A stretch of 64,000 nucleotides of DNA from Streptococcus cristatus AS 1.3089 (lineage in GTDB: Bacteria > Bacillota > Bacilli > Lactobacillales > Streptococcaceae): assembly GCF_000385925.1 (NCBI RefSeq), contig NC_021175.1, positions 503,501-567,500 of the forward strand. The letters are read 5' to 3'. Numbering within the stretch: the stretch's first letter is position 1; each line of letters starts with the position of its first letter. The notes under the pieces are model-generated. The model saw nothing but the letters and a program-made list of their open reading frames with translations, did no database searches and was not told the origin of the DNA. Below are positions 12,651 through 36,620 of the stretch, one piece after another. The translations under genes were made by a program, and so were the position numbers.

Positions 12651-13267
12651 TTATTCTAAACCTGTTCCTATCTTGCTAGTAAGTAGGAAAGAACCGTCTT
12701 CGTTTTTTGAAAAAGTTAGGATGACGGCTTGATATTTGCTTCCTTCTGGTAAGTAGGTGATGGTTTTTATTTCAGAGCCGCTGACAGTGGAAGTGGTTTC
12801 GTCAGTTGGTTTGCCGTGGTCGCGAATGACGTCGTCGTATTTTGTTCCGCCTGCACCTCTTTTCAAAATATCGCCCTCTTTGAGTGCATCAAATTCTGCT
12901 TTTGTCCATGTAAACTTCGTACTTTCTTCTTCTTTTTCTATTTTTCTTTCTGACGAATCAAAATAGGAACTATAAGAGTTTGTCAGAGTATCAAGTCCTT
13001 TTCCCACTTCATTAAACAACACATGGGAATAGAATGCTTGAGTAACAAGCGCGATGACTAAAGCGAAGAAGGAAATGATAGAACCAATAATAGCCAAAGT
13101 TTTCTGGCCTTTTGGGTTAATAACGAGACCGACAATACCAAGAACAAGAGCAATAGTACCGATAAAAAAGATAGATAATTGATGATTGGTATCCAGGAGC
13201 CAAGTAAAGCGATTGCTCCAAAGACAATGGCTAAAATACCTAGAACTTTATTTTCTTGTTGCATCAT
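12651..13267 (-). pseudogene. DUF3862-like membrane protein gene, frameshifted
   Basis: The N-terminal frame (start 13267, after GAGGAGG) gives MMQQENKVLGILAIVFGAIA and a second helix up to IINYLS. The downstream frame continues FFIGTIALVLGIVGLVINPKGQ, then a third helix and a C-terminal domain FTWTKAEFDALKEGD to the end. Adding one T to the T6 run (plus-strand A6 at 13164–13169) restores a 205-residue protein with a DUF4190-like membrane part and a DUF3862/BLIP-like domain. The same FxWT-type domain recurs in the three genes at 33804–36620. Either a sequencing slip or a real disruption. Confidence 0.65.
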
Positions 13268-20267: not shown

Positions 20268-21286
20268 ATGGCTGATTTATATATTCAACATTCGTCTTAT
20301 AGCTTGTCGGTGAGGGAGCAGCGTGTGCTTGTGCGAAATGAGGAGCACGTCTTGCTGAAAGAGATTTCCTTCAATCTGATTGACAATATCTTGGTCTTTG
20401 GCAATGCACAGCTGTCTACTCAGCTACAGAAAGCCTTGGCCACTAGAGCTATTTTGTGTTCTATTTCTCGAGCAAGGGCGAGTTTCTATTTTCCTTTGAT
20501 TCATTTAGGAAGGAAGATTTTGAAAAGCAGCGCAGTCAGGCTCGGGCTTCTTTTGATGCGGACTTTTGGTTGGGAATCGCTCGGAAAATCGCTGCCGCTA
20601 AGATAGGCAATCAGCTCAACCTGCTCCAGGCTTTTGACGAAAATGCTCTGCTGGATCAGGAGGATGTCAAACGCTTTAGAGATGGGCTGGTGCATATCGA
20701 GCAAGCTAGAAGCATTGCAGAGATTATGGGAATCGAAGGGCGACTGGCTAAATCATACTTTTATCTCTTGAACCTACTGGTCATTGATGGTTTTCATTTT
20801 TCTGGTCGGAGTCGTAGGCCAGCTCTGGACAAGTTTAATACCCTGCTAAACTTTGGTTACTCTATTCTTTATTCTTGCTTTATGGGCTTGATTCGCAAGA
20901 ATGGTCTGAGCTTGGGCTTTGGCGTGATGCATCAGCCACATGACCATCATGCTGTCTTGGCGAGTGATTTGATGGAGGAATGGCGGCCGGTGATTGTGGA
21001 TGATACGGTGCTGGGGCTGGTCAATCGTCAGGAAATTCTTGAAGAGCATTTCGTTGAGAAGGAAGATGGTATCTTTTTGACACCTGAAGGAATCGAGATC
21101 TTTTCTCGGGCTATGAGGGAGAGGATCTTGGAGATTCATCACTATGTCGAGCTGGACAAGAATCGCTACACTTTTCTATATGCGGCGGATCAGCAAATCA
21201 AATCCTTGATCCGAAGCTTTGAAGCCTTGGATCCAGCAGAGTATGTGTCTAGCTATACAGGAGGAGGGAAAGATGGTCTTCTTTAA
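20268..21286 (+). pseudogene. cas1: CRISPR integrase Cas1, frameshifted
   Basis: The frame from ATG 20268 encodes MADLYIQHSSYSLSVREQRV to ATRAIL and then diverges. The correct frame resumes at 20456 (VFYFSSKGEFLFSFDSF) and runs to 21286. One extra T in the T4 run at 20452–20455 would give RAIFVFYFSS and an intact protein of about 340 residues. Catalytic features are kept in the second part: Glu in GIEGRLAKSYF, His in MHQPHDHHAVLASDLMEEW and the following Asp/Glu. Cas1 with Cas2 inserts new spacers. If real, the break would stop acquisition; if a sequencing slip, the gene is complete. Overlaps cas2. Confidence 0.85.
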
Positions 21287-21599
21287 TCTTGATGATGATG
21301 AAAAAGAGTTTGCCAGAAAGAAAACAAAATTTTGTCTGGTTATTTACGATATCGTCAGCAATAAGCGGCGCTTGAAGCTGGCAAAGCTTTTGGAAGGCTA
21401 TGGCGTGAGGGTTCAGCGCTCCTGCTTTGAGCTGGCTCTTGAGAAGCTGGACTTTGACTGCCTGGTGAGAGAGCTGAGAACCTTTTATCAGGCAGAAGAA
21501 GGGGACAATATCATTATCTATCTGGGGCATAAGGAAGAGAGGATTGTTTTTAATCCTTATGCTAGCGCGGAGTTGCTAGAGGATATTTTGTTCTTTTAA
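21273..21599 (+). CDS. cas2: CRISPR-associated Cas2
   Basis: 108 residues. CLVIYDIVSNKRRLKLAKLL, then YGVRVQRSCFEL, is the Cas2 ferredoxin-fold signature with the conserved Asp at the end of strand 1. The ATG at 21273 follows GGAGGAGG and overlaps the cas1 end by 14 bases. A 12-residue acidic N-terminal extension (NLDDDEKEFARK) precedes the core. Cas2 bridges two Cas1 dimers during spacer integration. Confidence 0.92.
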   Translation: MVFFNLDDDEKEFARKKTKFCLVIYDIVSNKRRLKLAKLLEGYGVRVQRSCFELALEKLDFDCLVRELRTFYQAEEGDNIIIYLGHKEERIVFNPYASAELLEDILFF

Positions 21600-21624: not shown

Positions 21625-21706
21625 TATAATGGACTTAGGTTTTAGCTAGTTTCTAAGGGGTACAAGATGTGGTGGGGCTCTTTTGAGGCTTTATACAAGA
21701 TATGCC
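21625..21706 (+). promoter_or_regulatory. CRISPR leader with extended -10 promoter
   Basis: TATAAT (21625–21630) preceded by TGG lies 77 nt before the first repeat; no convincing -35. The leader between the cas2 stop and the array is about 107 nt. Transcription on the + strand fits the repeat polarity (handle at the 3' end) and the degenerate last repeat at the far end. Confidence 0.6.
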
Positions 21707-24700
21707 GTTAGACCCCCCCAATCCTCGCGAGGGGACGGAAACTTATTGTTTTTAATCTCATAAAAATCTAAATAAAGTTAGACCCCCCCAATCCTCGAGA
21801 GGGGACGGAAACGATTTTGAGTTTAGGAATGCGTATGCCCCATCGATTCGTTAGAACCCCCCAAATCCTCGAGAGGGGACGGAAACCTATTTGTGTCCTT
21901 ATCTGTAACCTTATTACGGTTCGTTAGAACCCCCCCAATCCTCGCGAGGGAACGGAAACTTATAATGCTTGTGGCTCTTAGGAAGGAACTTCCGTTAGAA
22001 CCCCCCTAATCCTCGAGAGGGTACGGAAACGATCCTATGTCAACTACATCAAAATAATATACGCGTTAGAACCCCCCTAATCCTCGCGAGGGAACGGAAA
22101 CTTGTTTTGCATTGGTGTGTGGAAATAAAGATCCATACGTTAGCCCCCAAAAAAATCCTTGAGAGGGAACGGAAACAAATCTTAAGTTTTTCAATTTACT
22201 TGAAATTCCCATTGGTTAGCCCCCCCTAATCCTCGAGAGGGGACGGAAACTTTCGCACGATGTCGCTTATGTGGTTGATGTGTTCGTTAGAGCTCCCCAA
22301 TCCTCGCGAGGGAACGGAAACTTGTTTTGCATTGGTGTGTGGAAATAAAGATCCATTCGTTAGATCCCCCAAAAATCCTCGCGAGGGGATGGAAACCTGC
22401 ATCTTCTTCTGTCCAGACCAGCTGGTATGTTAGCCCCCAAAGAATCCTCGCGAGGGGACGTAAACCTACCGTTCTGCGGCGCTATCCCAGTGAGGTACTG
22501 GTTAGAACCCTCCATATCCTCGAGAGGGGACGGAAACCCAACAGGGGCTTTACCTTGATTTGCTGGGTCTAATGTTAGCTCCCCCCAAAATCCTCGCGAG
22601 GGAACGGAAACTTGCGATTCCCATGTTTTAAAACAAACATTTTTTTAGTTAGAATCTCCCAAATCCTCGCGAGGGGACGGAAACTGTCATCATTTTATAA
22701 ATATAAGAGTCGCTCATTTCGTTAGAACCCCCATAATCCTCGCGAGGGGACGGAAACATAAGTTTATAGGTTATCATCGAATTAAAGAACTTGAGCTAGA
22801 CTCTTCCACATACCTCGCGAGGGTACGGAAACTCGTCGATACGACTCTGAATGTCCATATCAAGATTTTGTTAGACCCCCAAGAATCCTCGCGAGGGTAC
22901 GGAAACAAAAAATCCACTAGTGAAGCGATAGGAGTTTGGGATGAGTTAGACCCCCCCCCCTAATCCTCGAGAGGGGACGGAAACCCCAATTGGCTCTTTA
23001 GTTTCAATCTCAAGGATTGTGTTAGAACCCCCAAATCCTCGCGAGGGGACGGAAACTTAAAATACTCCTTCGTCCAGCTGTACACTGTATCAGTTAGACC
23101 CCCCCTAATCCTCGAGAGGGGACGGAAATGGTTCTAAAACCTCGCATTGAGCAATATCTTCTGTGTTAGATCTGCCCTAAATCTTGCGAGGGGACGGAAA
23201 CGAAGTAACGAAGCCTAATACATTATCAGGACCCTTTGTTAGACCCCCCCTAATCCTCGAGAGGGGACGGAAACGTTTCACCGCTTCTTCTTATCCGGTG
23301 TTTTAGTTAGAACCCTCCATATCCTCGAGAGGGTACGGAAACTTGACGATGACAGGGCGCTTTTGGACATCACGGTACGTTAGATCCCCCCTAAACCTCG
23401 AGAGGGGACGGAAACGCCATGCCAGCATCTTTAATAAAATCAATCATTGTTAGACCCCTCCATATCCTCGAGAGGGAACGGAAACATAAGTTTTATAGGT
23501 TATCATCGAATTAAAGAACTTGGTTAGACCCCCCACAATCCTCGCGAGGGTACGGAAACTCACGCTCCCAATCTAAAATCACGCGCATTTGTGTTAGAGC
23601 CCCCTAATCCTCGAGAGGGGACGGAAACAGAAGAGTGCCGGATTTACAGAAATGGTCGATAATGTTAGACCCCCCACAATCCTCGCGAGGGGACGGAAAC
23701 GAAATCAAGTGCACTCAAATCATCAGCTCCTTTAGTTAGAGCCCCCCATAATCCTCGCGAGGGGACGGAAACATACTTGAAGATTCAACAATAGCGAACC
23801 TACGGCCGTTAGAACCCTCCATATCCTCGAGAGGGGACGGAAACCTAGCAATTTCGATTGCCAGTTTTGATTGGATGTTTGTTAGATTCCCTCTAAACCT
23901 CGCGAGGGTACGGAAACGCAACATCCATGTCGTCAAAGTGCGATCGATAGCCAAGTTAGAGCCCCCCAAATCCTCGAGAGGGAACGGAAACATAGGGTCA
24001 AATGGTGCTACTAAGTGTTTACGTTTGGTTAGAACTCCCATAACCCTCGCGAGGGTACGGAAACGATTCACCCCACGAAATTTTGAAATAGATACCTGCT
24101 GTTAGAATCCCCTTAATCCTCGCGAGGGTACGGAAACAGCTCTGGATTTTCGTAGATGTTACCGATGATTTCGTTAGAACTCCCTAATCCTCGAGAGGGT
24201 ACGGAAACTTTTTCAAACTACTACTAGCGTTTGCTAGCTATCTAAGTTAGAACCCCCAAAATCCTCGAGAGGGAACGGAAACGATAAATGTACCAATCAG
24301 GTAGACCAAGAAAATATGTTAGATCCCCCCCAATCCTCGAGAGGGTACGGAAACAGAAAATCAGTTAAGGTTCGACTTTCGTATTTTGTTAGACCCCCCT
24401 AAACCTCGAGAGGGGACGGAAACTCTAAAATTTCAATATCATGTATCATAGTCTCACCTATATGTTAGACCCCCAAAAATCCTCGAGAGGGAACGGAAAC
24501 TGAATCCTCCTAAATAAAATTTTCAAGCAAAAGGTTAGAACCCTCCATATCCTCGCGAGGGTACGGAAACTACCATCGATCATCCCAAAATGATCCTTGT
24601 CAGCGTTAGATCCCACACAATCCTCGAGAGGGGACGGAAACTAAAATCTTTTTACCATATCGTTTAACAGCCTTTTGTTAGATCCCCCCTAATCCTCGCG

Positions 24701-24852
24701 AGGGGACGGAAACTCTTTTCAAACAGTTCTTCCCAAATTGTAGATTTGTTAGACCCCCCCTAATCCTCGAGAGGGGACGGAAACTTGTGATTCCCATGTT
24801 TTAAAACAAACATTTTTTTAGTTAGAATCCCCCAAATCCTCGAGAGGGTACA
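21707..24852 (+). CRISPR. Type III-A CRISPR array, 43 spacers, highly variable repeats
   Basis: By hand count there are 43 complete repeats of 36–40 nt plus a degenerate last one (24821–24852), separating 43 spacers of 31–40 nt. The frame is GTTAG, a variable C/A-rich stretch, then CCTC-GNGA-GGGN and ACGGAAAC. The last 20 nt match the S. thermophilus type III-A (CRISPR2) repeat end as I recall it. CCTC and GGGG pair around a GCGA (21 repeats) or GAGA (23) GNRA tetraloop. The base before the handle is G (23), T (12) or A (9). The handle deviates only in repeats 10 (ATGGAAAC), 11 (ACGTAAAC), 20 (ends AAAT) and the last. Three spacer pairs are near-duplicates. Confidence 0.98.
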
Positions 24853-24857
24853 GAGTG

Positions 24858-25077: not shown

Positions 25078-25812
25078 GTGAAGAAAGTAGAGTTACATTT
25101 ATCAAAGACAAGACTAAAAGACGAAGAATTGGTCAGTAAGCTTCAGGGCTTTTTGATGGCGCAGATTTCGCCAGACTTTGCGACCTTTCTCCATGAGCAG
25201 GAGACCAATCCCTACTCGATGAATCTGAGTTCCACGCGCGATGAGTCGGTGTGGGTTGTCAATTTGCTTTCAGAAGAGGCGGAACGGCAAATGCTAGCTC
25301 CTTTATTAAACTTGGAAACCATCAAGCTAGATAGCTATGCTGAGGAAATCCTTGTCAAAAAGGTGGAAATCCACTCCTTGTCCCAGCAGACCTTGCTGGA
25401 TATTTACCAAGATGATGATGCTTCCCACCTGATACGGGTGCATTTTTATACGCCAACGACCTTTAAGCGACAGGGGCAGTTTGTGCTATTTCCAGACACG
25501 CGTCTGATCTTTCAAAGTTTGATGCAAAAATACAGTCGACTGGTGGAAGGAAGAGTGGAAATCGAAGAGGAGACCCTGCAGTTTTTAGCAGACCATAGCC
25601 AAATCACCAGCTATCATCTAAAAAGTCATTATTTTCCAATTCATGGACGAAAATACCCCGCCTTTGAAGGCAGGGTGACGATACAGGTAAAGGGAGCATC
25701 CACACTAAAAGCTTATGCCCAGATGCTCCTGAGATTCGGTGAATATGCCGGAGTCGGCACAAAGTGTAGCCTAGGAATGGGAGGAATGAGAATTGAAGAA
25801 AGAAAAGATTGA
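25078..25812 (+). CDS. cas6: CRISPR endoribonuclease Cas6
   Basis: 244 residues, typical for type III-A Cas6. It cuts pre-crRNA at the base of the repeat hairpin, leaving the 8-nt ACGGAAAC handle. Two RAMP ferredoxin folds are expected. FLHEQETNPYSMNLSS holds His39, a candidate catalytic base, and the C-terminal Gly-rich loop GEYAGVGTKCSLGMGGM is the RNA-binding G-loop. The GTG start follows GAGAGGAG. It overlaps cas10 by 20 bases. Because the array's hairpin base varies (G/A/T), this enzyme must tolerate an open closing pair. Confidence 0.95.
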   Translation: MKKVELHLSKTRLKDEELVSKLQGFLMAQISPDFATFLHEQETNPYSMNLSSTRDESVWVVNLLSEEAERQMLAPLLNLETIKLDSYAEEILVKKVEIHSLSQQTLLDIYQDDDASHLIRVHFYTPTTFKRQGQFVLFPDTRLIFQSLMQKYSRLVEGRVEIEEETLQFLADHSQITSYHLKSHYFPIHGRKYPAFEGRVTIQVKGASTLKAYAQMLLRFGEYAGVGTKCSLGMGGMRIEERKD

Positions 25813-28090
25813 TTTGATTTACTGTGCCTTGTTTCACAATCTTGGCCGTATTGTCAGTCGCTCACTTGGCCAGTCTGATGATATAGGCTTAGGAAAAGCA
25901 TGGTTAAAGAAACAACTTCCTCAGCTGAATTTGTATGAAGATAGCAGAGCAGGAAAGATCGTTAGCTTAGCAGATCGTATTGCAAGTGGTTTACCAGATG
26001 ATAGAAAGGTTATGTCAGATAAACTTTTCTACCCTCAAGCAGATATTTTTAATGCTTTCAAAGAGGACAAGGGTTCTCGTTATCAGAAATTTGAAGTTCT
26101 GACAGATGATAGTGAACTCAATATTGCCAGCCACGAAGCAGATGATATTAGTCAGGATTGCTATGAGGAACTGCTGAATATTTTGAAAGAAAAACTGCAA
26201 GAACTTCCCTTAAGGGAAGAAAGCTTGCCATCCTTTTTCAATCTTTGGCGGATTTTGTTTTCGAAAGTACCTCTACTTCCTGGCGACAAGGAGCTGGGAG
26301 ATCTCTCTCTGGCAGAGCATAGTAGATTAACAGTTGCTTTTGCTACTGCGATTTTTGATTATCTGAAAAGTCAAGACCAATATACTCTACTAGATGATGA
26401 ATCCAAATTTTATAGAGAATCAGCCTTCTTGCTAGCTAGTTTTGATTTGTCTGGCATTCAGGACTTTATCTACAATATCGCCAGCAAAGGGGCTGCTAAG
26501 CAACTCAAGGCTCGCAGTCTTTATCTGGAATTTATGAGTGAAAATATTGTGGATAGTCTCTTGGAGAAGTTGGCTCTATCACGCGCCAATGCCCTTTATG
26601 TCGGTGGTGGCCATGCCTATTTTGTTTTACCCAATACAGAAGCTACAGTGGCAGCTTTGGAGCAGTTTGAAATAGATTTTAACAGTTTCCTACTGAAGCA
26701 TTTTCAGACGGGTCTCTATGTTGCTTTTGGTTGGGCACCATTTGCCGCAGAACAGATTATGAAATACCGTTATGGCTCGGTTGCCAGCTATCTACAACAC
26801 TATCGCGAGATCTACCAAGAGACTAGCCGGATGATTTCTGAAAAGAAAATCTCTCGCTACGATGCAACTATCCTGCGAGAGCTCAATAAGGGTGGTAAAC
26901 AGTCTGAACGGGAGTGTGAAATTTGCCATGCAGTTGGGGAGATTGAGATGTTGCGGATAGGTAGTGAGGATGTACAAAATCTTTGTCCTATTTGTCGTGA
27001 GCTTAGAGGCTTTGCTGCTAAAATTCATACTTTTGACGATACTGAAAATCCTGAAAGGGAAGACTACTATTATTTCCAAATTGTAGAGGGAGAAGAAGGA
27101 CTGCCGATTGGCCCTGAAGCTGTATTGCTGGCTGTTGATGAAGATGATATTTCCACCTCTAGTCGTTTATATGTGAAAAATAAATTTTCTACGAATAATG
27201 CTGCTATTCATGTCTTTATAGGAGACCGTCAGGCAGCGAATATTGAAGACTATGCAGGTCTATCTCAAAAAGAAATCGAAGGAACTGAGGGAGTAGCTAA
27301 GGGAATTAAGCGGCTGGCCGTTTTGCGTTTGGATGTAGACAATCTAGGTGCAGCTTTTATGGCTGGATTTTCTAAGCAGGAAGGTGGAAGCTATAATACT
27401 CTTGCTCGCTCTGCTGTATTTTCTCAGCAGATGAGTCTTTTCTTTAAGTTTCACATTAACCAATTTGCAAAGGATAAGAATTTGACGATTATCTATGCAG
27501 GTGGTGATGATGTATTTGCGATTGGCAGCTGGCAGGATGTTATAGATTTTGCGGTGGATATTAGGCAGAAATTTATTGCTTTTACAAATGGGAAGCTGAC
27601 CTTATCTGCAGGTGTTGGGCTTTATCCAGACAAAACTCCGATTCATCTGATGGCTTTGGATGCTGGACAACTTGAAGAGGCCGCCAAGGAAAATGGTAAA
27701 GATAGTATTTCTCTTTTCAATGAACGGTACACTTTCAAGTTTGATGACTTTATTAATGAGATTTACAAAGGGAAATTGAAGGATATTCGGAAATATTTCT
27801 CTGGTCAGAAGGAGCGGGGTATCAATTTTCTCTATCGCTTGGTTGAACTTTTGCAACTTAATGACAAAGAAATGTATAAGTCACACGGATCTTCTGATGA
27901 TAGAAGGATGAATGTTGCCCGCTTAGCCTACCTACTGGCGCGAATGGAAGATGAAGCCAACAAAGAGGAGAAGGAACATTTCAGAGAATTCAAAAATGCT
28001 TTTTGGAATTGGTATAAGAGTAGCAGTAAAACACAGAGAGAAGCAGAGTTAGCTCTCATCTACTATCTATATGAGATTAGAAAGGTATAA
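25793..28090 (+). CDS. cas10: Cas10/Csm1, type III-A large subunit with altered HD motif
   Basis: 765 residues; TTG start after GGGAGG. The N-terminal HD nuclease region reads CALFHNLGRIV: H15 is kept but the partner Asp is N16 (AAT, 25838–25840). The RYH-type His seen in S. thermophilus Csm1 is also not apparent, while SLADRIASG remains. A zinc ribbon has CEICH and CPICR (about 380–405). The Palm domain has YAGGDD (G570-G571-D572-D573), so cyclic oligoadenylate synthesis should work. Family knowledge: HD cuts ssDNA, Palm makes cOA on target RNA binding. Prediction: DNase-dead, cyclase-active. Confidence 0.95.
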   Translation: MKKEKIDLIYCALFHNLGRIVSRSLGQSDDIGLGKAWLKKQLPQLNLYEDSRAGKIVSLADRIASGLPDDRKVMSDKLFYPQADIFNAFKEDKGSRYQKFEVLTDDSELNIASHEADDISQDCYEELLNILKEKLQELPLREESLPSFFNLWRILFSKVPLLPGDKELGDLSLAEHSRLTVAFATAIFDYLKSQDQYTLLDDESKFYRESAFLLASFDLSGIQDFIYNIASKGAAKQLKARSLYLEFMSENIVDSLLEKLALSRANALYVGGGHAYFVLPNTEATVAALEQFEIDFNSFLLKHFQTGLYVAFGWAPFAAEQIMKYRYGSVASYLQHYREIYQETSRMISEKKISRYDATILRELNKGGKQSERECEICHAVGEIEMLRIGSEDVQNLCPICRELRGFAAKIHTFDDTENPEREDYYYFQIVEGEEGLPIGPEAVLLAVDEDDISTSSRLYVKNKFSTNNAAIHVFIGDRQAANIEDYAGLSQKEIEGTEGVAKGIKRLAVLRLDVDNLGAAFMAGFSKQEGGSYNTLARSAVFSQQMSLFFKFHINQFAKDKNLTIIYAGGDDVFAIGSWQDVIDFAVDIRQKFIAFTNGKLTLSAGVGLYPDKTPIHLMALDAGQLEEAAKENGKDSISLFNERYTFKFDDFINEIYKGKLKDIRKYFSGQKERGINFLYRLVELLQLNDKEMYKSHGSSDDRRMNVARLAYLLARMEDEANKEEKEHFREFKNAFWNWYKSSSKTQREAELALIYYLYEIRKV

Positions 28091-28094
28091 AAAG

Positions 28095-28610
28095 ATGGCA
28101 CCGTACGAAAAAAATAAAAATAACCAAAATAACGGTGGAAAGAAATTTCCAAACAATCGTAATCAAGATAGATATGGTAATCAAAATAATGAACAAAAAT
28201 ATTTCAAGCTTGAGCCACCTATTTTGACGGATGATTATGTCGATAAGGCTGAGAAGGTTATTCGTAAGTTGGATAATTCAGGGAAATACGAAAAAGGACC
28301 AAGTAAGGGCAAGATGAAATTTAAATTAACCAGTACACAAATTCGTAATTTAGCAGCTTTGACCAGTAATCTTTTTGACGAAAGTAAATCCAAAAATGAT
28401 ATTGAAGAGTTAAGAGAAAAAATTTCCTATTTGAGGATTCAGTTTGTTTACCAATCTGGAAGAGAACCAGCTGTAGAAGATTTTGTTAAAAAAGCAGGTT
28501 TATTAGAAGCGTTGACAGAAATTCAAGATATACCGAGTTTGCAGCGCTTCTGTCGATATATGGAAGCTTTGATTGCATATTTTAAATTCAACGGAGGAAG
28601 AGATCAATGA
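28095..28610 (+). CDS. csm2: Csm2 small subunit with Asn-rich N-terminus
   Basis: 171 residues, about 50 more than S. thermophilus Csm2. Residues 1–40 are rich in Asn, Lys, Gln and Gly and look disordered. The helical Csm2 core begins around TDDYVDKAEKVIRKL and contains LTSTQIRNLAALTSNL and ISYLRIQFVYQSGREPAVEDFV. Csm2 lines the target RNA channel. ATG 28095 (after GAAAGG) is preferred to ATG 28071, which would overlap cas10 by 20 bases. Its stop overlaps the csm3 start. Confidence 0.9.
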   Translation: MAPYEKNKNNQNNGGKKFPNNRNQDRYGNQNNEQKYFKLEPPILTDDYVDKAEKVIRKLDNSGKYEKGPSKGKMKFKLTSTQIRNLAALTSNLFDESKSKNDIEELREKISYLRIQFVYQSGREPAVEDFVKKAGLLEALTEIQDIPSLQRFCRYMEALIAYFKFNGGRDQ

Positions 28611-29317
28611 CCTATTCAAAAGTAAAAATTTCAGGAATTATTGAGCTGAAAAGCGGACTTCATATTGGGACCAGTAATGCCTTTGCAGCTATTGGTGCTA
28701 CCAATAATCCCATTATCAAAGACCCCCTTACGAATCTTCCCTATATTCCTGGATCCACTTTAAAAGGAAAAATGCGCAGCTTACTTTATCGGACAGACTA
28801 TAATAACAATACAAGTGATAAGTTAAGTAAAGATAGTTTGGAAATTAGCCGTCTCTTCGGAAATTCAGAAACTTATAAAATTGGTCGCTTGGTTTTTCGA
28901 GATGCCTTTCTAAACAACAAAGAAGAGCTAGGTAAAAGAGTATCTACTTACACAGAAGTTAAGTTTGAAAATACTATCAATCGCATTACAGCTGAAGCAA
29001 CTCCACGACAAGTTGAGCGAGCTATTCGTGAAAGTCAATTTGCTTTTGAGATTATCTATTCTATCCAGGAGAAAGAACTCACTGAGGTAGAAAAGGACAT
29101 GGAAATTCTCAAAGCTGGTTTTGAATTGTTGGAATGGGATTACTTAGGCGGTTCTGGTAGTCGTGGCTATGGTAAAGTGTGTTTTAAAGACTTTGAGGTT
29201 AAGACTGTCTTTGGTGAATTTGATAAAGATAGGATTATAGAAGCTCTGAAGCCATATACTAAGGATGAGTCCGATGGTGGAGAAAGTGCAGAGAATCCAG
29301 ATTCGGATATTAAGTAA
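28607..29317 (+). CDS. csm3: Csm3 backbone subunit with Asn at the catalytic position
   Basis: 236 residues, RAMP fold. GLHIGTSNAFAAIGATNNPIIKDP aligns without gaps to S. thermophilus Csm3 (as recalled) GLHIGGSDAFAAIGAIDSPVIKDP, so the target-cleaving Asp33 is Asn33 here (codon AAT, 28703–28705). The other landmarks are intact: YIPGSTLKGKMRSLL, FENTINRITAEATPRQ and the G-loop LGGSGSRGYGK. Csm3 copies form the crRNA filament and cut target RNA every 6 nt in characterised complexes. Prediction: assembles and binds but does not slice. An acidic tail ends the protein. ATGA overlap with csm2. Confidence 0.95.
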   Translation: MTYSKVKISGIIELKSGLHIGTSNAFAAIGATNNPIIKDPLTNLPYIPGSTLKGKMRSLLYRTDYNNNTSDKLSKDSLEISRLFGNSETYKIGRLVFRDAFLNNKEELGKRVSTYTEVKFENTINRITAEATPRQVERAIRESQFAFEIIYSIQEKELTEVEKDMEILKAGFELLEWDYLGGSGSRGYGKVCFKDFEVKTVFGEFDKDRIIEALKPYTKDESDGGESAENPDSDIK

Positions 29318-29328
29318 GGAGGTCTGCT

Positions 29329-30237
29329 ATGGCCTATCAACTCTATAAATTAGATTTTAAGTCTGCGCATTTTGGCGAAGGTCATTTGGATGATTCGGTC
29401 ATGACTTTCACGGCAGCCCGTCTTTACTCCGCCTTAGTGCTTGAAGCTATTAAGATGGGGGTCTTAGATAAGTTTGAAGCTTTATCTCAACAGGAGGATT
29501 TTGTGCTGACTGATGCTTTCCCCTATAATGAAGTTCCCTATCTCCCCAAGCCTATCGGCTATCCATTATTAGATAAAGTCAACCGAAGTGAAGATATTAT
29601 CAAACAGCGGGAAGAAGCTAAAAAAGTAAAGAAGTTAGCTTTTATTAAGCTGGGGGATTTTGACTGCTTTCTATCTGGAAATAGTATCATCGGTGAATAT
29701 CTGGCTACAAAATCAGTTAACACAAAAAACCAGCCCTTCCAAGATGGAAATCTTTATCAAGTTGCTTCAGTTCACTTTGACAAAAGCAGTCTGTATTTCA
29801 TCGCCAATCAATCTGATTTGTTGGATCGTTTGTTGGAAAGTCTTCAGTTTAGTGGTATCGGAGGAAAGCGCAGCAGTGGTTACGGTAGTTTTACTCTGGA
29901 TAAAACAGTTCAACAACCGCTTGATTTTTTTAAAAGATTAACTGTTAAATATACAGGGAAAGTAATGACTTTGACAACTTCTTTGCCAGTGGATAGTGAT
30001 TTGGAAATAGCAATGAATGAGGGGCGTTACTTACTGAAAAAGGGAAGTGGCTTTGCATTTAGTGAGAAAATAGAGTCTAATTATCGTAAGCAGAATCTTT
30101 ACACTTTTAAGGCAGGTTCAACCTTTTCCAAAACGTATAATGGTCAAATCTGTGATGTCAGGCCAAGTAATGAGTTTCCTCATCCAGTCTGGCATTATGC
30201 TAAACCTTTATTTTATATATTGGAGGAATCCAAATGA
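29329..30237 (+). CDS. csm4: Csm4, crRNA 5'-handle cap subunit
   Basis: 302 residues, Cas5-like RAMP. Starts MAYQLYKLDFKSAHFGEG and has the G-rich loop FSGIGGKRSSGYGSF near 180–195. In type III-A complexes Csm4 holds the crRNA handle and contacts Cas10. AAGGAGG precedes the ATG, 11 bases after csm3; its end overlaps csm5 by four bases. Confidence 0.93.
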   Translation: MAYQLYKLDFKSAHFGEGHLDDSVMTFTAARLYSALVLEAIKMGVLDKFEALSQQEDFVLTDAFPYNEVPYLPKPIGYPLLDKVNRSEDIIKQREEAKKVKKLAFIKLGDFDCFLSGNSIIGEYLATKSVNTKNQPFQDGNLYQVASVHFDKSSLYFIANQSDLLDRLLESLQFSGIGGKRSSGYGSFTLDKTVQQPLDFFKRLTVKYTGKVMTLTTSLPVDSDLEIAMNEGRYLLKKGSGFAFSEKIESNYRKQNLYTFKAGSTFSKTYNGQICDVRPSNEFPHPVWHYAKPLFYILEESK

Positions 30238-31352
30238 AGACAGAATATAGGAAATTTAAGTTGACCCTGTGTACATTGGGACCAGTGCATATTGGGAGTG
30301 GTCAGCTTCGTACCGCTCGTGAGTATATCCTTGAAGGGGACGAATATTATTTTCCAGATATGACGCTGCTTTATGACGAACTTATCAAACAAGGAATTGA
30401 TGAAAAATTTGAAAAATTTTTAATTAACTCGGATAATAAAACCAATCGAATAAGTGATTTTCTAGCTGAGCATGGCATAACAAAACGTGATTTTGGGGGG
30501 TATAGACTTAAAGCAACAGGACTTGAAAAGCCTAAAGGAGACTATGCAACCCGAAATCAGGAAACGACAGATCCAGGAGAAATCAATGGTGTTCATCAAT
30601 TTATGAGAGATTGTTACGGTAACCCTTATATCCCGGGCAGCTCTCTTAAAGGTGCTATTCGCACTATTTTGATGAATACGCATTGGCACTCAACGAATTT
30701 TAAGCAGGAAAATAAAAAAGGCAAAATCGTTGAAAATAAGAAAGCGATTCCTTGGGGACCAACTCGACGGCAGAGACATAAAGAATTAGAACCTTTTGAT
30801 GATATTTTTAATGAGATTCGTGTCTCAGACAGTCAGACTCTGACAAATGATGATTTAATTCTTGTTCAAAAGTGGGATTTTACTCCAGATGATACAAAGC
30901 CGCATTCACTGAGTATATATCGTGAAGCTCTGAGACCTGGAACTAAGATGGAATTTGAAATCATTACTGCTTCAGGTTTTAAAGATGGAAGAGCCGGTGA
31001 GCTCGTTGCTTCTCTTGGAGAATATGCACAAAAATTTTACTTTGGAGTGACAGAAGATGAAGCCTATGAAGGCTACGAAGCTTTCTTTCTAAAGAAATTT
31101 CCTAATCATTTAATTCAGAACAATCTATCCTATCCCCTCTATCTAGGTGGTGGAAGTGGTGCTTGGACCAAAACAGTTTTTAGGCAGGCGGATGGCGAAG
31201 TTCAACAACGACATGAGAAAATGTCTGGACGAGGAGCTCTAAAATTGACAAAGGCGCCTTTTTTAACCGTTGATGGTGAAATAGAATTAATTAATAATGC
31301 AGAGAATTTCTATGAAATGGGCAAAACCTGTTTTACGATTATGGAGGAGTAA
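30234..31352 (+). CDS. csm5: Csm5, crRNA 3'-end cap subunit
   Basis: 372 residues, RAMP fold. LCTLGPVHIGSGQLRTAREYI at the start, PYIPGSSLKGAIRTILMNT near 130 and LGGGSGAWTKTVFRQ near 310 are the family landmarks. Csm5 caps the filament and recruits host nucleases that trim the crRNA 3' end. The start overlaps csm4 (ATGA), and csm6 begins five bases after its stop. Confidence 0.93.
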   Translation: MKTEYRKFKLTLCTLGPVHIGSGQLRTAREYILEGDEYYFPDMTLLYDELIKQGIDEKFEKFLINSDNKTNRISDFLAEHGITKRDFGGYRLKATGLEKPKGDYATRNQETTDPGEINGVHQFMRDCYGNPYIPGSSLKGAIRTILMNTHWHSTNFKQENKKGKIVENKKAIPWGPTRRQRHKELEPFDDIFNEIRVSDSQTLTNDDLILVQKWDFTPDDTKPHSLSIYREALRPGTKMEFEIITASGFKDGRAGELVASLGEYAQKFYFGVTEDEAYEGYEAFFLKKFPNHLIQNNLSYPLYLGGGSGAWTKTVFRQADGEVQQRHEKMSGRGALKLTKAPFLTVDGEIELINNAENFYEMGKTCFTIMEE

Positions 31353-31356
31353 CAAG

Positions 31357-32673
31357 ATGAAGACATTAATCACATTTATTAGTCAGTATGATCCGATTGG
31401 TGTTGAATTTGTGGATACAAAACAAGATAATGTAGATGGTCGTCAAAAAAGATTTAGACCTGAATTCGGACAGGAATTAACTTTAGATTCAGTTGAAAAC
31501 TATGAAAAAGATGGCTATGGATTAAAGATATCAGATGGTGCTGCTCTTTTTATTATAAAAAATGAATTACCTGACAAAATTATTGTGATATATAGTGATG
31601 AGATGAAGGTAAAGCAGAAAAACTTTGAAGCAGCTGTTCAAGCTGTTTACGATGGAAAAGAATCTCCAGTGATACAGAATGAGCATGTAAAAGAAGGGAT
31701 TCACAAATTTGATACAATGTATAAATTCGTGGAAGAAATTCTTAACAGAGAAGATATGTCACAAGGGGATTATATTTTAAATGTGACGAGTGGAACTCCC
31801 CAGTGTCAGGCTGCTATGTATGCTATCAATTTTGTCAAGGATTACCATACAAGGCTTGCTCGGGTGAATTCTCCAAGAAGTGAGAAGACAAATCAATCAA
31901 ACCAAGGAGCTCCCTGGTTTGAAACAGATACTTTTAAATATTTTTTGGAAAAACAAGCCTTAGATAGTAAAGACAATCGTCAGTTGGGGATTGAAAAAGG
32001 AGAGAAGTTCAAAAATAATTTACTACAGCGGACTTATAAAGATTTCATTTTGAAGTATGAATACAAAGCGGCGTTAGATATCTTAAAGGCAAATCGCGAT
32101 ATCATTTCCAACGAACAAGATTGGGAAGATTCAAAAAATATATTAGAAAACATGATTAGTGTTTTTCAAAAACAGAGAGTTCTTGAAGATCTTGCAGCTG
32201 ATGCTAATTTGCAATATGATGACACAGATGAGTTTCAAAAAGTGTTAAACTATTATCTGATGATTGATATTCTAAACCGTAAAGGTCAAGTGACTGATGT
32301 GCTAGTCAAGGCAAAATCCTTTGCGGAGTTTATCTTAAAATCTGTGATTGAAAGAAGACATCCAGATTTAGAAGTAATTAAAAAGAATAAGAGAATTAAT
32401 ATCTTTGATATGATTAAAATTCTCAACCATTATCATGAATATTCTGAATTTGAAACTTCAATTTCAAAAATTATAGCTGTAAATAATCAAAGGAATAAAG
32501 TTGCTCACGGACTGGCTGAGATTTCAGTGGAGCAAGAGGACTTGGACGAATTGGTGAAAAGTTTGAAGGAGCTCATCATTACTGCATATTCTGATATAAA
32601 TGCCTCTTTATATCAGAAATATTTTGATTATTATGATATAAAGAATCGAGAGTTAATCAGCTGTATTAAATAG
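31357..32673 (+). CDS. csm6: Csm6, cOA-activated HEPN ribonuclease
   Basis: 438 residues. The N-terminal CARF domain has a Rossmann-type start (MKTLITFISQYDPIG) and the ligand motif ILNVTSGTPQCQAAMYAINF (about 138–157). The C-terminal HEPN domain has R379-N-K-V-A-H384, an intact Rx4H active site. Cyclic oligoadenylate from Cas10 binds CARF and turns on non-specific RNA cleavage. ATG 31357 follows GGAGGAG; the open frame from 31297 lies inside csm5. With both other nucleases altered, this is the main predicted effector of the system. Confidence 0.95.
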   Translation: MKTLITFISQYDPIGVEFVDTKQDNVDGRQKRFRPEFGQELTLDSVENYEKDGYGLKISDGAALFIIKNELPDKIIVIYSDEMKVKQKNFEAAVQAVYDGKESPVIQNEHVKEGIHKFDTMYKFVEEILNREDMSQGDYILNVTSGTPQCQAAMYAINFVKDYHTRLARVNSPRSEKTNQSNQGAPWFETDTFKYFLEKQALDSKDNRQLGIEKGEKFKNNLLQRTYKDFILKYEYKAALDILKANRDIISNEQDWEDSKNILENMISVFQKQRVLEDLAADANLQYDDTDEFQKVLNYYLMIDILNRKGQVTDVLVKAKSFAEFILKSVIERRHPDLEVIKKNKRINIFDMIKILNHYHEYSEFETSISKIIAVNNQRNKVAHGLAEISVEQEDLDELVKSLKELIITAYSDINASLYQKYFDYYDIKNRELISCIK

Positions 32674-33803: not shown

Positions 33804-34619
33804 ATGGCCAAAGATGCTGACTATAAGAAGCGTTCAGTAGGACTACCCATTGCTATTTTTATAGTATTTTTGACAACTTGCTTAATGATTCCACTTGGGA
33901 AGGTGACGATCATGTGGGGGCTTAACTCTGCTTATGAGGAACTTGGGCGAAGCAGTGTGTCTTCATCTGTTCGTCAAAAATCACCAGAGGAGCTTGAGCT
34001 AGAGAAGAAAGTTGTTGATAGAGAAAACTCTCGTTTTAAATGGACAACTGATGACATCATCAATCTGCAAATTAAGGATACTGCAGCTGGTCAAAACGGA
34101 GCTTCTCTGGACCAAGTCCTTGAAAAGCATGGCAAGGCTTCAAGCTTTTTTTATACTGAGAGCAATGGGAATATTGAATTAAGCTATGTCAGTGAGGGTA
34201 TTCAAGGCCGTCATAGTAGTTTAAGATTGACATATGAAAAAGATGGAGCAGGCTATTATCTCATTGCTAAGAAAGCGAATATTCTTGATGAGGCTTATCC
34301 AAGTTTGCCACAGGAGCATAGTCCTCATCTTTGGACAAAGGACGAAGTAGCCAGTTTACAAGTCCGTGACGAGAGTACAGGTAATCTTGGTATGTCCTAT
34401 GAAGAAATCATTCAATTATTTGGTCTCCCTCGAGAATCAGAAGTGTTTATTTCGCGCTTGGATGCGGCAGATAGCCAGCATATTGGCTTGGAACTCAAAT
34501 ACTTAACATCAGATCAAGTCTATGATAATGAATGGGTTCATTTAATTTTACACCGTCAAGAAGATGGCGTCTTTCGGTTGACGACAGTTACTAGTCATAT
34601 CGATAGAACAGAAAGATAG
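33804..34619 (+). CDS. Membrane-anchored protein with two DUF3862/BLIP-like domains (copy A)
   Basis: 271 residues. A short cytoplasmic head (MAKDADYKKRS) and one transmembrane helix (about 13–36) lead to an extracytoplasmic part with two similar domains. Each opens F/LWT (FKWTTDDIINLQIKD; HLWTKDEVASLQVRD), has GxSL/YxE..xxxGxP in the middle and ends in a beta strand with LTYEKDGAGYYLIAK or LILHRQEDGVFRLTT. This is the SmpA/BLIP-type fold pattern of DUF3862. First of three tandem paralogs. Function unknown. Confidence 0.65.
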   Translation: MAKDADYKKRSVGLPIAIFIVFLTTCLMIPLGKVTIMWGLNSAYEELGRSSVSSSVRQKSPEELELEKKVVDRENSRFKWTTDDIINLQIKDTAAGQNGASLDQVLEKHGKASSFFYTESNGNIELSYVSEGIQGRHSSLRLTYEKDGAGYYLIAKKANILDEAYPSLPQEHSPHLWTKDEVASLQVRDESTGNLGMSYEEIIQLFGLPRESEVFISRLDAADSQHIGLELKYLTSDQVYDNEWVHLILHRQEDGVFRLTTVTSHIDRTER

Positions 34620-34781: not shown

Positions 34782-35627
34782 ATGAAGAGACAAGAAGATT
34801 CGTTTGAAGATCTTGCTTTCGAGTTAGAAAAGCAAACCTATAAGTCCAAGATTTTACCATTCATGCTAGTAGCTATTGTTGTATTTTCTATCATTGGAAC
34901 GGTTTTTTTGACGCTTTCTCTGTCAGAAAAAAGCAAAGCCAAGCAGACGCCAATTCTGTCTAGCCAGATTAGTTCATCATCAAATAGTTTGGAAGATGAG
35001 AAAGCTGAAGCAGAACAATTCGCTAAAAGTCTTATCGTCCCTCCAGAAAAAAGCGATCCCTTTCTTTGGACAGTTGAAAAGGCAGTCGCGCTTCCCATGA
35101 ATAAATACAAGGGCGGAGCCGTCTTGGAAGATGTTTTAAAAGAATTTGGGAAACCAGTTCAAGGTGGGGCCTGGATTGAATTTTTGCCGAATCACGAAGT
35201 TCAAAAGCGTATTCATCTTATCTGGGAATCGAACAATAGTAGTCTGGGCTATGTATCTTTAACCTTTGCTGAATTTGATGGTGTCTATAAGGTCATTTCA
35301 AAACACCATTTTAGCCTTCCAAGTGATAAAATTCAGGTGGATAACAATCCTAAAAGATCCTTTTTATGGACACAAGAATACGTAGATAGTCTTGTTATTG
35401 ATACTAAAGAAGGAACATACAAAGGTACACCATATGATGAGATTGTTTTAAAAGTTGGCTTACCACTATATCAGAAGATTACTGGAGACGACAATCAACT
35501 GAAGATGCAGGTTGATTATGTTAATCCACATTATTGGCAAAACCCAGAGCAATTGAAAAGAGTTAATTTAGAATTCTACAAGCAAGTAGATGGTAGATGG
35601 CGTTTGGTGTCTAAAGAAAGTAAGTAA
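34782..35627 (+). CDS. Membrane-anchored protein with two DUF3862/BLIP-like domains (copy B)
   Basis: 281 residues. Transmembrane helix at about 28–48 (MLVAIVVFSIIGTVFLTLSL), Ser-rich linker, then domain 1 (FLWTVEKAVALPMNKYKGGA) and domain 2 (FLWTQEYVDSLVIDTKEG). Same plan as its neighbours but with low identity, as expected for an old tandem family. AAGGAG precedes the ATG. No catalytic residues are evident. Confidence 0.6.
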   Translation: MKRQEDSFEDLAFELEKQTYKSKILPFMLVAIVVFSIIGTVFLTLSLSEKSKAKQTPILSSQISSSSNSLEDEKAEAEQFAKSLIVPPEKSDPFLWTVEKAVALPMNKYKGGAVLEDVLKEFGKPVQGGAWIEFLPNHEVQKRIHLIWESNNSSLGYVSLTFAEFDGVYKVISKHHFSLPSDKIQVDNNPKRSFLWTQEYVDSLVIDTKEGTYKGTPYDEIVLKVGLPLYQKITGDDNQLKMQVDYVNPHYWQNPEQLKRVNLEFYKQVDGRWRLVSKESK

Positions 35628-35654: not shown

Positions 35655-36620
35655 ATGAGGAGAAGTAGCAAGAAAAAACGTGATCTTCATTCGTTTAGAG
35701 AGATCAAAAGAGACCTTTATCGTCAACAAAAGCTAAAAAGGGAAGAGCTCAGCACAATGACGATGCAAGAGGAGAGAAAAAGGCTTGCCTTGGCCTATCT
35801 CCTTCTTTGTTTGGCGATCTCATTTGCTTTGTTCTTTGGCTTCTATTATTTATCGCAAAAGGTTCCTAACAAAGCTGAACTGAAGTACAAATATGACGAT
35901 AAATCCTCGTCAGTTAGTGGAGACAGCTCAGCTAGTCAGCAAGGTGATGACGAATCAAAATTGACCCAAGAACAAAAGGAGCTGAAAAAGAAAATTGTTG
36001 AGGAAGATGAAGAGAAGTTTGCTTTTAATTGGACATTAGATAATTTTGTAGAGCTCAAGGTGGAAAATGGGGGGACTAATAGCCCAACTTTAGAAGAAGT
36101 CATTGCGAAATATGGTAAGGGTTCAGCTGTGAGTTTTGGTACAAAAGGATTGACACTAACTTATAAGACAAGAATTATAGATGTTCCTAGATATGGCTCA
36201 TCGGGACATCCTCAGGAGATTCGTTTGAGCTTTTATGATCCTGATTCAAATGGAAAGACCTACTATTTGATAAATAAAAGTGCAGTATATTTAGATGACA
36301 GTAGATATCCTTCAGCGACGAAAGATGAATTTGTCTTTAAGTGGAAGCAAGAAGATATGGATACATTAAAAATAGGTGATAGCCAGCATGGCAAAGGCGG
36401 GATGACTTATCAAGAGGTTGTTGAGCGTTTTGGACTTCCTTCAGAACTTAATATTTATGGAAGTGGCATGAGCAATAGCCCCTTATCACTACAGGCCAAT
36501 TATAGAAACTTTCGAAATATAGAACGAAAATATGATTCAGTAACCTTGACTTTCAAGAGGCAGGAAGATGGCAGTTTTTATCTGGCAAATGCAAATAGTG
36601 AATTTGACAAGAGCTGGTAA
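35655..36620 (+). CDS. Membrane-anchored protein with two DUF3862/BLIP-like domains (copy C)
   Basis: 321 residues. A strongly basic cytoplasmic head (MRRSSKKKRDLHSFREIKRD, about 50 residues) precedes a helix (LAYLLLCLAISFALFFGFYYL), an acidic/Ser linker and two domains opening FNWTLDNFVELKVENGG and FKWKQEDMDTLKIGDSQHG. Follows copy B by 27 bases with GAGGAGG as ribosome site, so B and C are likely co-transcribed. Confidence 0.6.
   Translation: MRRSSKKKRDLHSFREIKRDLYRQQKLKREELSTMTMQEERKRLALAYLLLCLAISFALFFGFYYLSQKVPNKAELKYKYDDKSSSVSGDSSASQQGDDESKLTQEQKELKKKIVEEDEEKFAFNWTLDNFVELKVENGGTNSPTLEEVIAKYGKGSAVSFGTKGLTLTYKTRIIDVPRYGSSGHPQEIRLSFYDPDSNGKTYYLINKSAVYLDDSRYPSATKDEFVFKWKQEDMDTLKIGDSQHGKGGMTYQEVVERFGLPSELNIYGSGMSNSPLSLQANYRNFRNIERKYDSVTLTFKRQEDGSFYLANANSEFDKSW

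What the first reader, a model, noticed from the sequence alone, without database searches (positions are those of the whole stretch)
25793..32673. A signalling-only type III-A system: both nucleases altered, cyclase and Csm6 intact
In known type III-A systems, slicing of target RNA by Csm3 ends cOA synthesis. With D33N and the HD Asp lost while GGDD and the Csm6 Rx4H motif remain, the complex should sense RNA, make cOA and have no self-timer. This predicts strong, lasting Csm6 RNase action (dormancy or abortive infection) rather than DNA clearance. All subunits are otherwise full length, arguing for maintained function.
Basis: inference. Interest (0 to 1): 0.88.

Follow-up and report, generated by a model that had tools for sequence, protein, structure and literature searches.

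The report
CRISPR alarm missing its off-switches
Some mouth streptococci carry an RNA-sensing CRISPR system whose DNA- and RNA-cutting sites have changed to forms expected to be inactive, while its alarm-signal enzyme and the alarm-driven RNA shredder are kept, which suggests a defence that only sounds an alarm.

Summary
25078-32673 is a complete type III-A operon (cas6, csm1-csm6). Cas10/Csm1 has Asn16 and most of its HD site is gone; Csm3 has Asn at the slicing Asp33; GGDD and the Csm6 HEPN motif are intact. It is inherited: 6 of the 17 csm-bearing genomes (among 284 Streptococcus) share N16, N33 and GGDD, and N33 Csm3s form one clade (100/100). At 54 other Csm3 loci position 33 is D (52) or E (2). 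Csm genes are under purifying selection (dN/dS 0.09-0.46), and 8 of 8 distinct phage-matching spacers checked are antisense to an annotated phage gene. I add a third change: Csm6 has Q10-Y11 where solved cA6-Csm6s have the scissile-site N10/T11, in 121 of 121 sequences examined. So the DNase, the slicer and perhaps Csm6's ring-nuclease site are altered while alarm synthesis and response are kept. Against a strong reading: HD loss alone is common (15 of 17); an engineered HD-dead/slicer-dead staphylococcal double mutant left spacer enrichment unchanged; S. thermophilus Csm stays active long after slicing; 2 of 5 sister genomes carry a frameshift in one csm gene. New variant of a known kind; no activity shown.

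The parts
20268..21286 (+). cas1, broken: two overlapping ORFs (20268-20606 and 20456-21286) in different frames, one-base frameshift
   Evidence: homologues in G198, G019, G190, G192 are single open frames, that in G023 is also interrupted
21273..21599 (+). cas2 (108 aa), intact ORF
   Evidence: identified by position and sequence, not scanned against a family library
21706..24857 (+). CRISPR array, about 45 repeats; repeat ends ACGGAAAC (tag); repeats very variable in their 5' half; last repeat degenerate at the cas6 side
25078..25812 (+). cas6 (crRNA-processing endoribonuclease)
   Evidence: TIGR01877, 78 bits, cut-off 58.65
25793..28090 (+). csm1/cas10: HD domain shortened, HN at 15-16; cyclase GGDD intact
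   Evidence: TIGR02578, 576.4 bits; alignments
25838..25840 (+). codon 16 of csm1, Asn in place of the HD Asp
27500..27511 (+). csm1 codons 570-573, GGDD
28071..28610 (+). csm2
   Evidence: TIGR01870, 64.2 bits
28607..29317 (+). csm3, backbone subunit with N33 in place of the slicing Asp
   Evidence: TIGR02582, 212.6 bits
28703..28705 (+). codon 33 of csm3 (Asn)
29329..30237 (+). csm4
   Evidence: TIGR01903, 185.1 bits
30234..31352 (+). csm5
   Evidence: TIGR01899, 110.8 bits
31357..32673 (+). csm6, CARF-HEPN ribonuclease, 438 aa
31384..31389 (+). csm6 codons 10-11, Gln-Tyr at the position of the CARF scissile-site Asn10/Thr11
   Evidence: roles of N10/T11 from PMC7101355 and PMC10702470
32491..32508 (+). 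csm6 HEPN motif RNKVAH (R379-H384)

Best explanation
It is a type III-A CRISPR system of oral streptococci that has become signalling-only. Inferred mechanism: crRNAs from the array guide the Csm complex to complementary phage mRNA; binding switches on the Cas10 cyclase (GGDD); the cyclic oligoadenylate activates the HEPN ribonuclease of Csm6, which slows or stops the infected cell and protects the population. The complex itself should neither cut DNA (HD site dismantled) nor slice the bound RNA (Csm3 N33). Shown by sequence: the residues, their inheritance, purifying selection, spacer orientation. Inferred: loss of both activities, cyclase and Csm6 activity, and the outcome for the cell. The alarm may be harder to switch off than in relatives, because slicing and, possibly, cOA breakdown by the Csm6 CARF domain (T11 to Y11) are also affected; that last step is the least certain.
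For: Residues. N33 in 6 of 17 Streptococcus csm loci, D in the other 11; GGDD in 17 of 17. N33 Csm3s are one clade, 100/100, 8 rows of 49. D in 52 and E in 2 of 54 other loci. dN/dS below 0.5 in every pair of every csm gene compared. HEPN R and H kept in 121 of 121 Csm6 (window plus the 120 listed of 203 found). 8 of 8 distinct phage-matching spacers antisense to an annotated gene. The module moves between species: cas6 dS 1.4-2.0 against csm3 dS 0.15-0.19 for the same genome pairs. RNase-dead Csm3 raised cOA-coupled sensitivity about 3-fold in T. thermophilus Csm (PMC8157118, passages).
Against: No activity was measured. In 2 of 5 sister genomes a csm gene carries a frameshift (csm4 in G192, csm5 in G019), and cas1 is interrupted in the window and in G023. 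RNase-dead Cmr4 caused dormancy or death by autoimmunity in Saccharolobus (PMC9368842, abstract), so a slicer-dead system needs tolerance that is not explained here. N33 was not shown to be inactive by any search; D33A and D34A are the mutants described as RNase-dead in what I read, D33N being known to me only from the PDB sequences and recall.
Confidence: 0.6

Rival explanations
1. A decaying system: nuclease sites were lost because the locus is no longer needed, and further breaks are accumulating.
For: Frameshifts in csm4 (G192), csm5 (G019) and cas1 (window), interrupted cas1 in G023; repeats of the array are very variable.
Against: dN/dS 0.09-0.46 across csm genes, with G192 csm4 and G019 csm5 left out of the count because they are frameshifted; HEPN motif kept in 121 of 121 Csm6; GGDD in 6 of 6; recent horizontal spread of the module; spacers matching present-day phages at up to 100%. 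One-base differences can also be sequencing errors.
Confidence: 0.2
2. N33 is only weakened, not dead: the complex still slices slowly and behaves as an ordinary HD-less type III-A system.
For: Nature allows E at this position in 2 of 54 loci, so the site tolerates some change; HD loss without N33 occurs in 9 of 17 Streptococcus loci.
Against: Asn cannot act as the acid that D/E can be; the 6ifk group of structures carries N33, recalled as a trap for uncut RNA.
Confidence: 0.12
3. The complex works by binding, not signalling: it silences phage or cellular mRNAs by holding them, and Csm6 is secondary or answers another signal.
For: An uncut target stays bound; the Csm6 CARF entrance is remodelled (Q10-Y11 and an insertion of 27-44 aa against 3 aa in other streptococcal Csm6), so its ligand may differ.
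Against: GGDD and HEPN residues are invariant in the clade, which binding alone would not require.
Confidence: 0.08

Closest known systems
S. thermophilus type III-A Csm (6nud, 6ifk and related entries)
   Same: Same subunits; Csm1 matched over 1-764 (736 bits) and Csm3 over 1-213 (264 bits)
   Different: Wild type has HD and D33, and two csm6 genes in the streptococcal relatives examined; here N16, N33 and one csm6 with Q10-Y11
Vibrio metoecus Cmr/NucC (type III-B)
   Same: No HD nuclease and very slow slicing, proposed to hold the cyclase on and push cells to dormancy or abortive infection (PMC8682760, passages)
   Different: Type III-B, prophage-borne, cA3 and a DNA nuclease effector; its Cmr4 still slices
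Engineered staphylococcal cas10-HD/dcsm3 double mutant
   Same: Man-made equivalent of the double loss; spacer enrichment pattern unchanged (PMC11708336, passages)
   Different: Laboratory construct with a canonical Csm6; here natural, inherited, and with a changed Csm6 CARF
Type VII CRISPR-Cas
   Same: Natural loss of the Cas7 slicing residues (PMC12669027, passages)
   Different: Type VII cuts RNA with Cas14 and has no Cas10 cyclase alarm; here GGDD and Csm6 are kept
StCsm6' and EiCsm6 (cA6-driven, self-limiting)
   Different: Both have the N10/T11 contacts at the scissile site (PMC10702470); here Q10-Y11 and an insertion

Membership tests
Type III-A CRISPR-Cas | cas10/csm1 with csm2, csm3, csm4, csm5 in one operon | tested here: met
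   All above NCBIfam cut-offs
Type III-A CRISPR-Cas | Cyclase motif GGDD in Cas10 | tested here: met
   Residues 570-573; 17 of 17 Streptococcus loci
Type III-A CRISPR-Cas | CRISPR array with ACGGAAAC tag and a Cas6 | tested here: met
Type III-A CRISPR-Cas | Csm3 slicing Asp (usual, not required by classification) | tested here: not met
   N33; D or E in 54 of 54 other loci read
Type III-A CRISPR-Cas | HD nuclease motif (present in 65% of III-A, PMC11229360; not required) | tested here: not met
   HN; HD kept in 2 of 17 Streptococcus loci
Csm6 (CARF-HEPN ribonuclease) | HEPN R-x4-H | tested here: met
   121 of 121
Csm6 (CARF-HEPN ribonuclease) | CARF and HEPN domains | tested here: met
   Pfam PF22208 and PF09659 above cut-off; fold match
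Self-limiting cA6 Csm6 | N10/T11 at the cA6 scissile site | tested here: not met
   Q10-Y11 in 121 of 121; T11 in 11 of 13 other streptococcal Csm6 aligned
Self-limiting cA6 Csm6 | cA6 degradation by the protein | not testable with these tools
   Needs biochemistry
Signalling-only / abortive type III defence | cOA made without DNase or slicing, with growth arrest | not testable with these tools
   Inferred from residues only

The most novel reading that the evidence does not exclude
One lineage of type III-A systems has given up all three known ways of ending the alarm: DNA clearance by the HD nuclease, slicing of the trigger RNA by Csm3, and breakdown of the messenger by the Csm6 CARF domain. 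It would then be an irreversible, population-level suicide or dormancy alarm, inherited as a unit, swapped between oral streptococci in place of the canonical csm1-csm6 module, and possibly using a messenger other than cA6.
Probability: 0.3. Interest if true: 0.8.

Novelty: new variant of a known kind. Interest (0 to 1): 0.6.

Why it matters
Whether slicing by Csm3 is needed to end cOA signalling is disputed between systems. Nature appears to have made the double knockout, and G194 shows that a canonical csm1-csm6 module can sit at a locus with the same kind of cas1, cas6 and array. Comparing the two modules would test directly what slicing, DNA clearance and self-limiting Csm6 contribute to survival and to abortive defence. 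A naturally slicer-dead complex could also serve RNA detection, where RNase-dead Csm is already preferred (PMC8157118).

Tried and rejected
Palm2 DVDN (others in Streptococcus have DVDD): considered as a sign of a damaged cyclase and rejected, because DVDN is the commonest form in the other loci read.

Ring nucleases elsewhere in the genome: Crn2 (PF08960) no match, control rang in B. subtilis; Csx3 (PF09620) and Crn1 (PF09651) no match, but nothing rang in the controls either, so these two say nothing. Csx15, Csx16 and Csx20 were not searched.

Spacer searches of G190's array gave no phage match. A Foldseek 'pdb' search was not run; the VIA second look was used. A Cas10 structure was not predicted, although an alignment was made. 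A first orientation of census loci was wrong and a script failed; only one search is used. The cas2 rows come from an out-of-frame query and are disregarded.

Rows left out: dN/dS left out G192 csm4 and G019 csm5 (frameshifted). Census left out the window itself, two Csm1 fragments below the cut-off (second matches of G583 and G459), and G515, for which no Csm3 was read; 3 of its 54 loci are Streptococcus genomes also in the set of 17. Csm3 homologue list: 114 of 120 listed proteins plus none other had D, 2 had N, 4 were fragments without the position (only the best 120 of 7804 are listed). Spacer orientation: one phage record was inspected per distinct spacer, and the hit lists were partly hidden (33, 36 and 35 records not listed), so further spacers may match. 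Literature: searches listed no paper that I recognised as describing a natural III-A lineage with the Csm3 Asp lost; the library holds only openly licensed papers, and PMC10123807 was not held.

Full report
What is there. The window lies in a 2.14-Mb Streptococcus genome of one contig. From 20268 it holds cas1 (frameshifted), cas2, a CRISPR array (21706-24857), cas6, csm1 to csm5 and csm6, all on the + strand. Cas6 and Csm1-Csm6 score above their NCBIfam cut-offs. The csm6 start is the ATG at 31357.

The active sites. Against S. thermophilus chains, Csm1 reads HN where 6nud has HD, and Csm3 reads N where 9no4 has D33; a set of PDB entries (6ifk and others) carries exactly N16 in Csm1 and N33 in Csm3. 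I recall these as nuclease-dead mutants used to trap the complex; no paper that I could open gave D33N (one search found none), but D33A is called RNase-dead for S. thermophilus (PMC11040160, passages) and a D-to-A mutant at this residue for T. thermophilus (PMC8157118, passages). The HD domain has lost more than one residue: relative to G063, which keeps HD, it is shorter and lacks other His positions. GGDD is kept.

How widespread. csm1 and csm3 are found in 17 of 284 Streptococcus genomes, one genome per species. Six form the group of the window: G000; G198 (contig length that of S. sinensis HKU4); G023 (S. cristatus BCC51); G019 (S. cristatus DD08); G192 (contig length that of an S. sanguinis genome) and G190. 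Names are inferred from equal contig lengths. All 6 have HN, N33 and GGDD; the other 11 have D33 and GGDD; HD is kept in 2 of 17 (G063, G106), so HD loss without N33 occurs in 9 of 17 and N33 never without HD loss. In a tree of 49 Csm3 rows the 8 with N33 are one side of a branch with support 100/100. Among 120 listed Csm3 homologues, 114 have D, 2 have N and 4 are fragments without the position. In 56 further csm1 loci from phylum and order searches, Csm3 was read in 54: D in 52, E in 2, N in none. Three of these are Streptococcus genomes already counted. The change is thus inherited and apparently of single origin.

Is it maintained? NG86 dN/dS between clade members: csm1 0.12-0.19, csm2 0.16-0.46, csm3 0.09-0.27, csm4 0.09-0.22, csm5 0.18-0.35, csm6 0.25-0.38, cas6 0.04-0.18 (frameshifted G192 csm4 and G019 csm5 left out). 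The csm module has moved: between the window group (G000, G023, G198) and G190/G192, csm3 dS is 0.15-0.19 and csm1 0.33-0.36, while cas6 dS is 1.4-2.0 and the first 110 codons of csm1 1.27-1.29 in the three pairs computed. The junction lies within csm1, near the HD region. G194 has cas1 and cas6 at the same identity to the window as G190 and G192 (about 70% and 80%) but a canonical D33 csm1-csm6 with two csm6 genes. Against maintenance: a one-base frameshift in csm4 of G192 and in csm5 of G019, 2 of 5 sister genomes; cas1 is frameshifted in the window and interrupted in G023.

What it looks at. Searching the arrays of the window, G023, G198, G192 and G190 against 50,697 phage records gave 8 distinct spacers with matches: 3 in the window, 2 more in G023 (one further is shared with the window), 2 in G198, 1 in G192, none in G190. 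For all 8, in the one record inspected, the annotated gene under the match runs opposite to the crRNA, so the crRNA would pair with the mRNA; two of these matches only overlap the start of the gene. One match is to a record labelled Campylobacter phage. No comparison array with D33 was searched.

How it most likely works. RNA-guided sensing, cOA synthesis, Csm6 RNA cleavage, arrest of the infected cell and protection of the population. In staphylococci Csm6 arrest protects at population level, and the HD DNase is needed for arrested cells to regrow (PMC11708336, passages); a system without HD would therefore be expected to recover poorly. Slicing ends cOA synthesis in S. solfataricus (PMC6053304, passages) and slicer-dead complexes signal more in T. 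thermophilus. But in S. thermophilus activation outlasts slicing by an hour or more, slow-slicing VmeCmr gained nothing from a slicer mutation (PMC8682760, passages), and the engineered HD/dcsm3 double mutant showed no change in spacer enrichment. So the size of the effect is open. RNase-dead Cmr4 caused autoimmune dormancy or death in Saccharolobus (PMC9368842, abstract); how these streptococci tolerate N33 is unexplained.

Known or new. HD-less, cyclase-active type III systems are ordinary: HD was recognised in 39% of 1113 loci and 65% of III-A (PMC11229360, passages). Loss of Cas7 slicing residues is reported for type VII (PMC12669027, passages). I found no report of a natural III-A lineage lacking both, in the searches listed under Tried and rejected, which cover open-licence papers only. 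I rate it a new variant of a known kind.

Noticed in passing
window 21706-24857; L039, L040, L041, L042, L045: Repeats are very variable (37 distinct of 39 read in the window), mainly in the 5' half and at two hairpin positions, while spacers shared between or within arrays are nearly identical: over 7 spacer pairs, 1 of 224 spacer sites differs against 43 of 252 repeat sites (fixed frame, so indels inflate the latter; 3 trailer pairs dropped). The G239 array is near uniform (4 distinct of 10). In G190 the first five repeats are identical and distal ones diverge.. Cause unknown.
   Followed up: partly
window 22104-22140 and 22323-22358; 22612-22648 and 24785-24821; 22758-22794 and 23486-23522: Three spacers occur twice in the array, identical or nearly so, flanked by different repeats.
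   Followed up: partly
window 20268-21286: cas1 is frameshifted in the window and interrupted in G023, open in G198, G019, G190 and G192.
   Followed up: partly
L045 (G194): cas1 and cas6 as in the S. sanguinis group but a canonical D33 csm1-csm6 module with two csm6 genes: a module swap.
   Followed up: partly
L074 and L083: Csm3 with Glu in place of the slicing Asp in two loci that keep HD and GGDD.
   Followed up: no
window 33804-34619, 34782-35627, 35655-36620, and 12651-13097 (-): A run of three similar predicted membrane-anchored proteins downstream of csm6, with a fourth similar ORF elsewhere; judged by eye from the translations.
   Followed up: no
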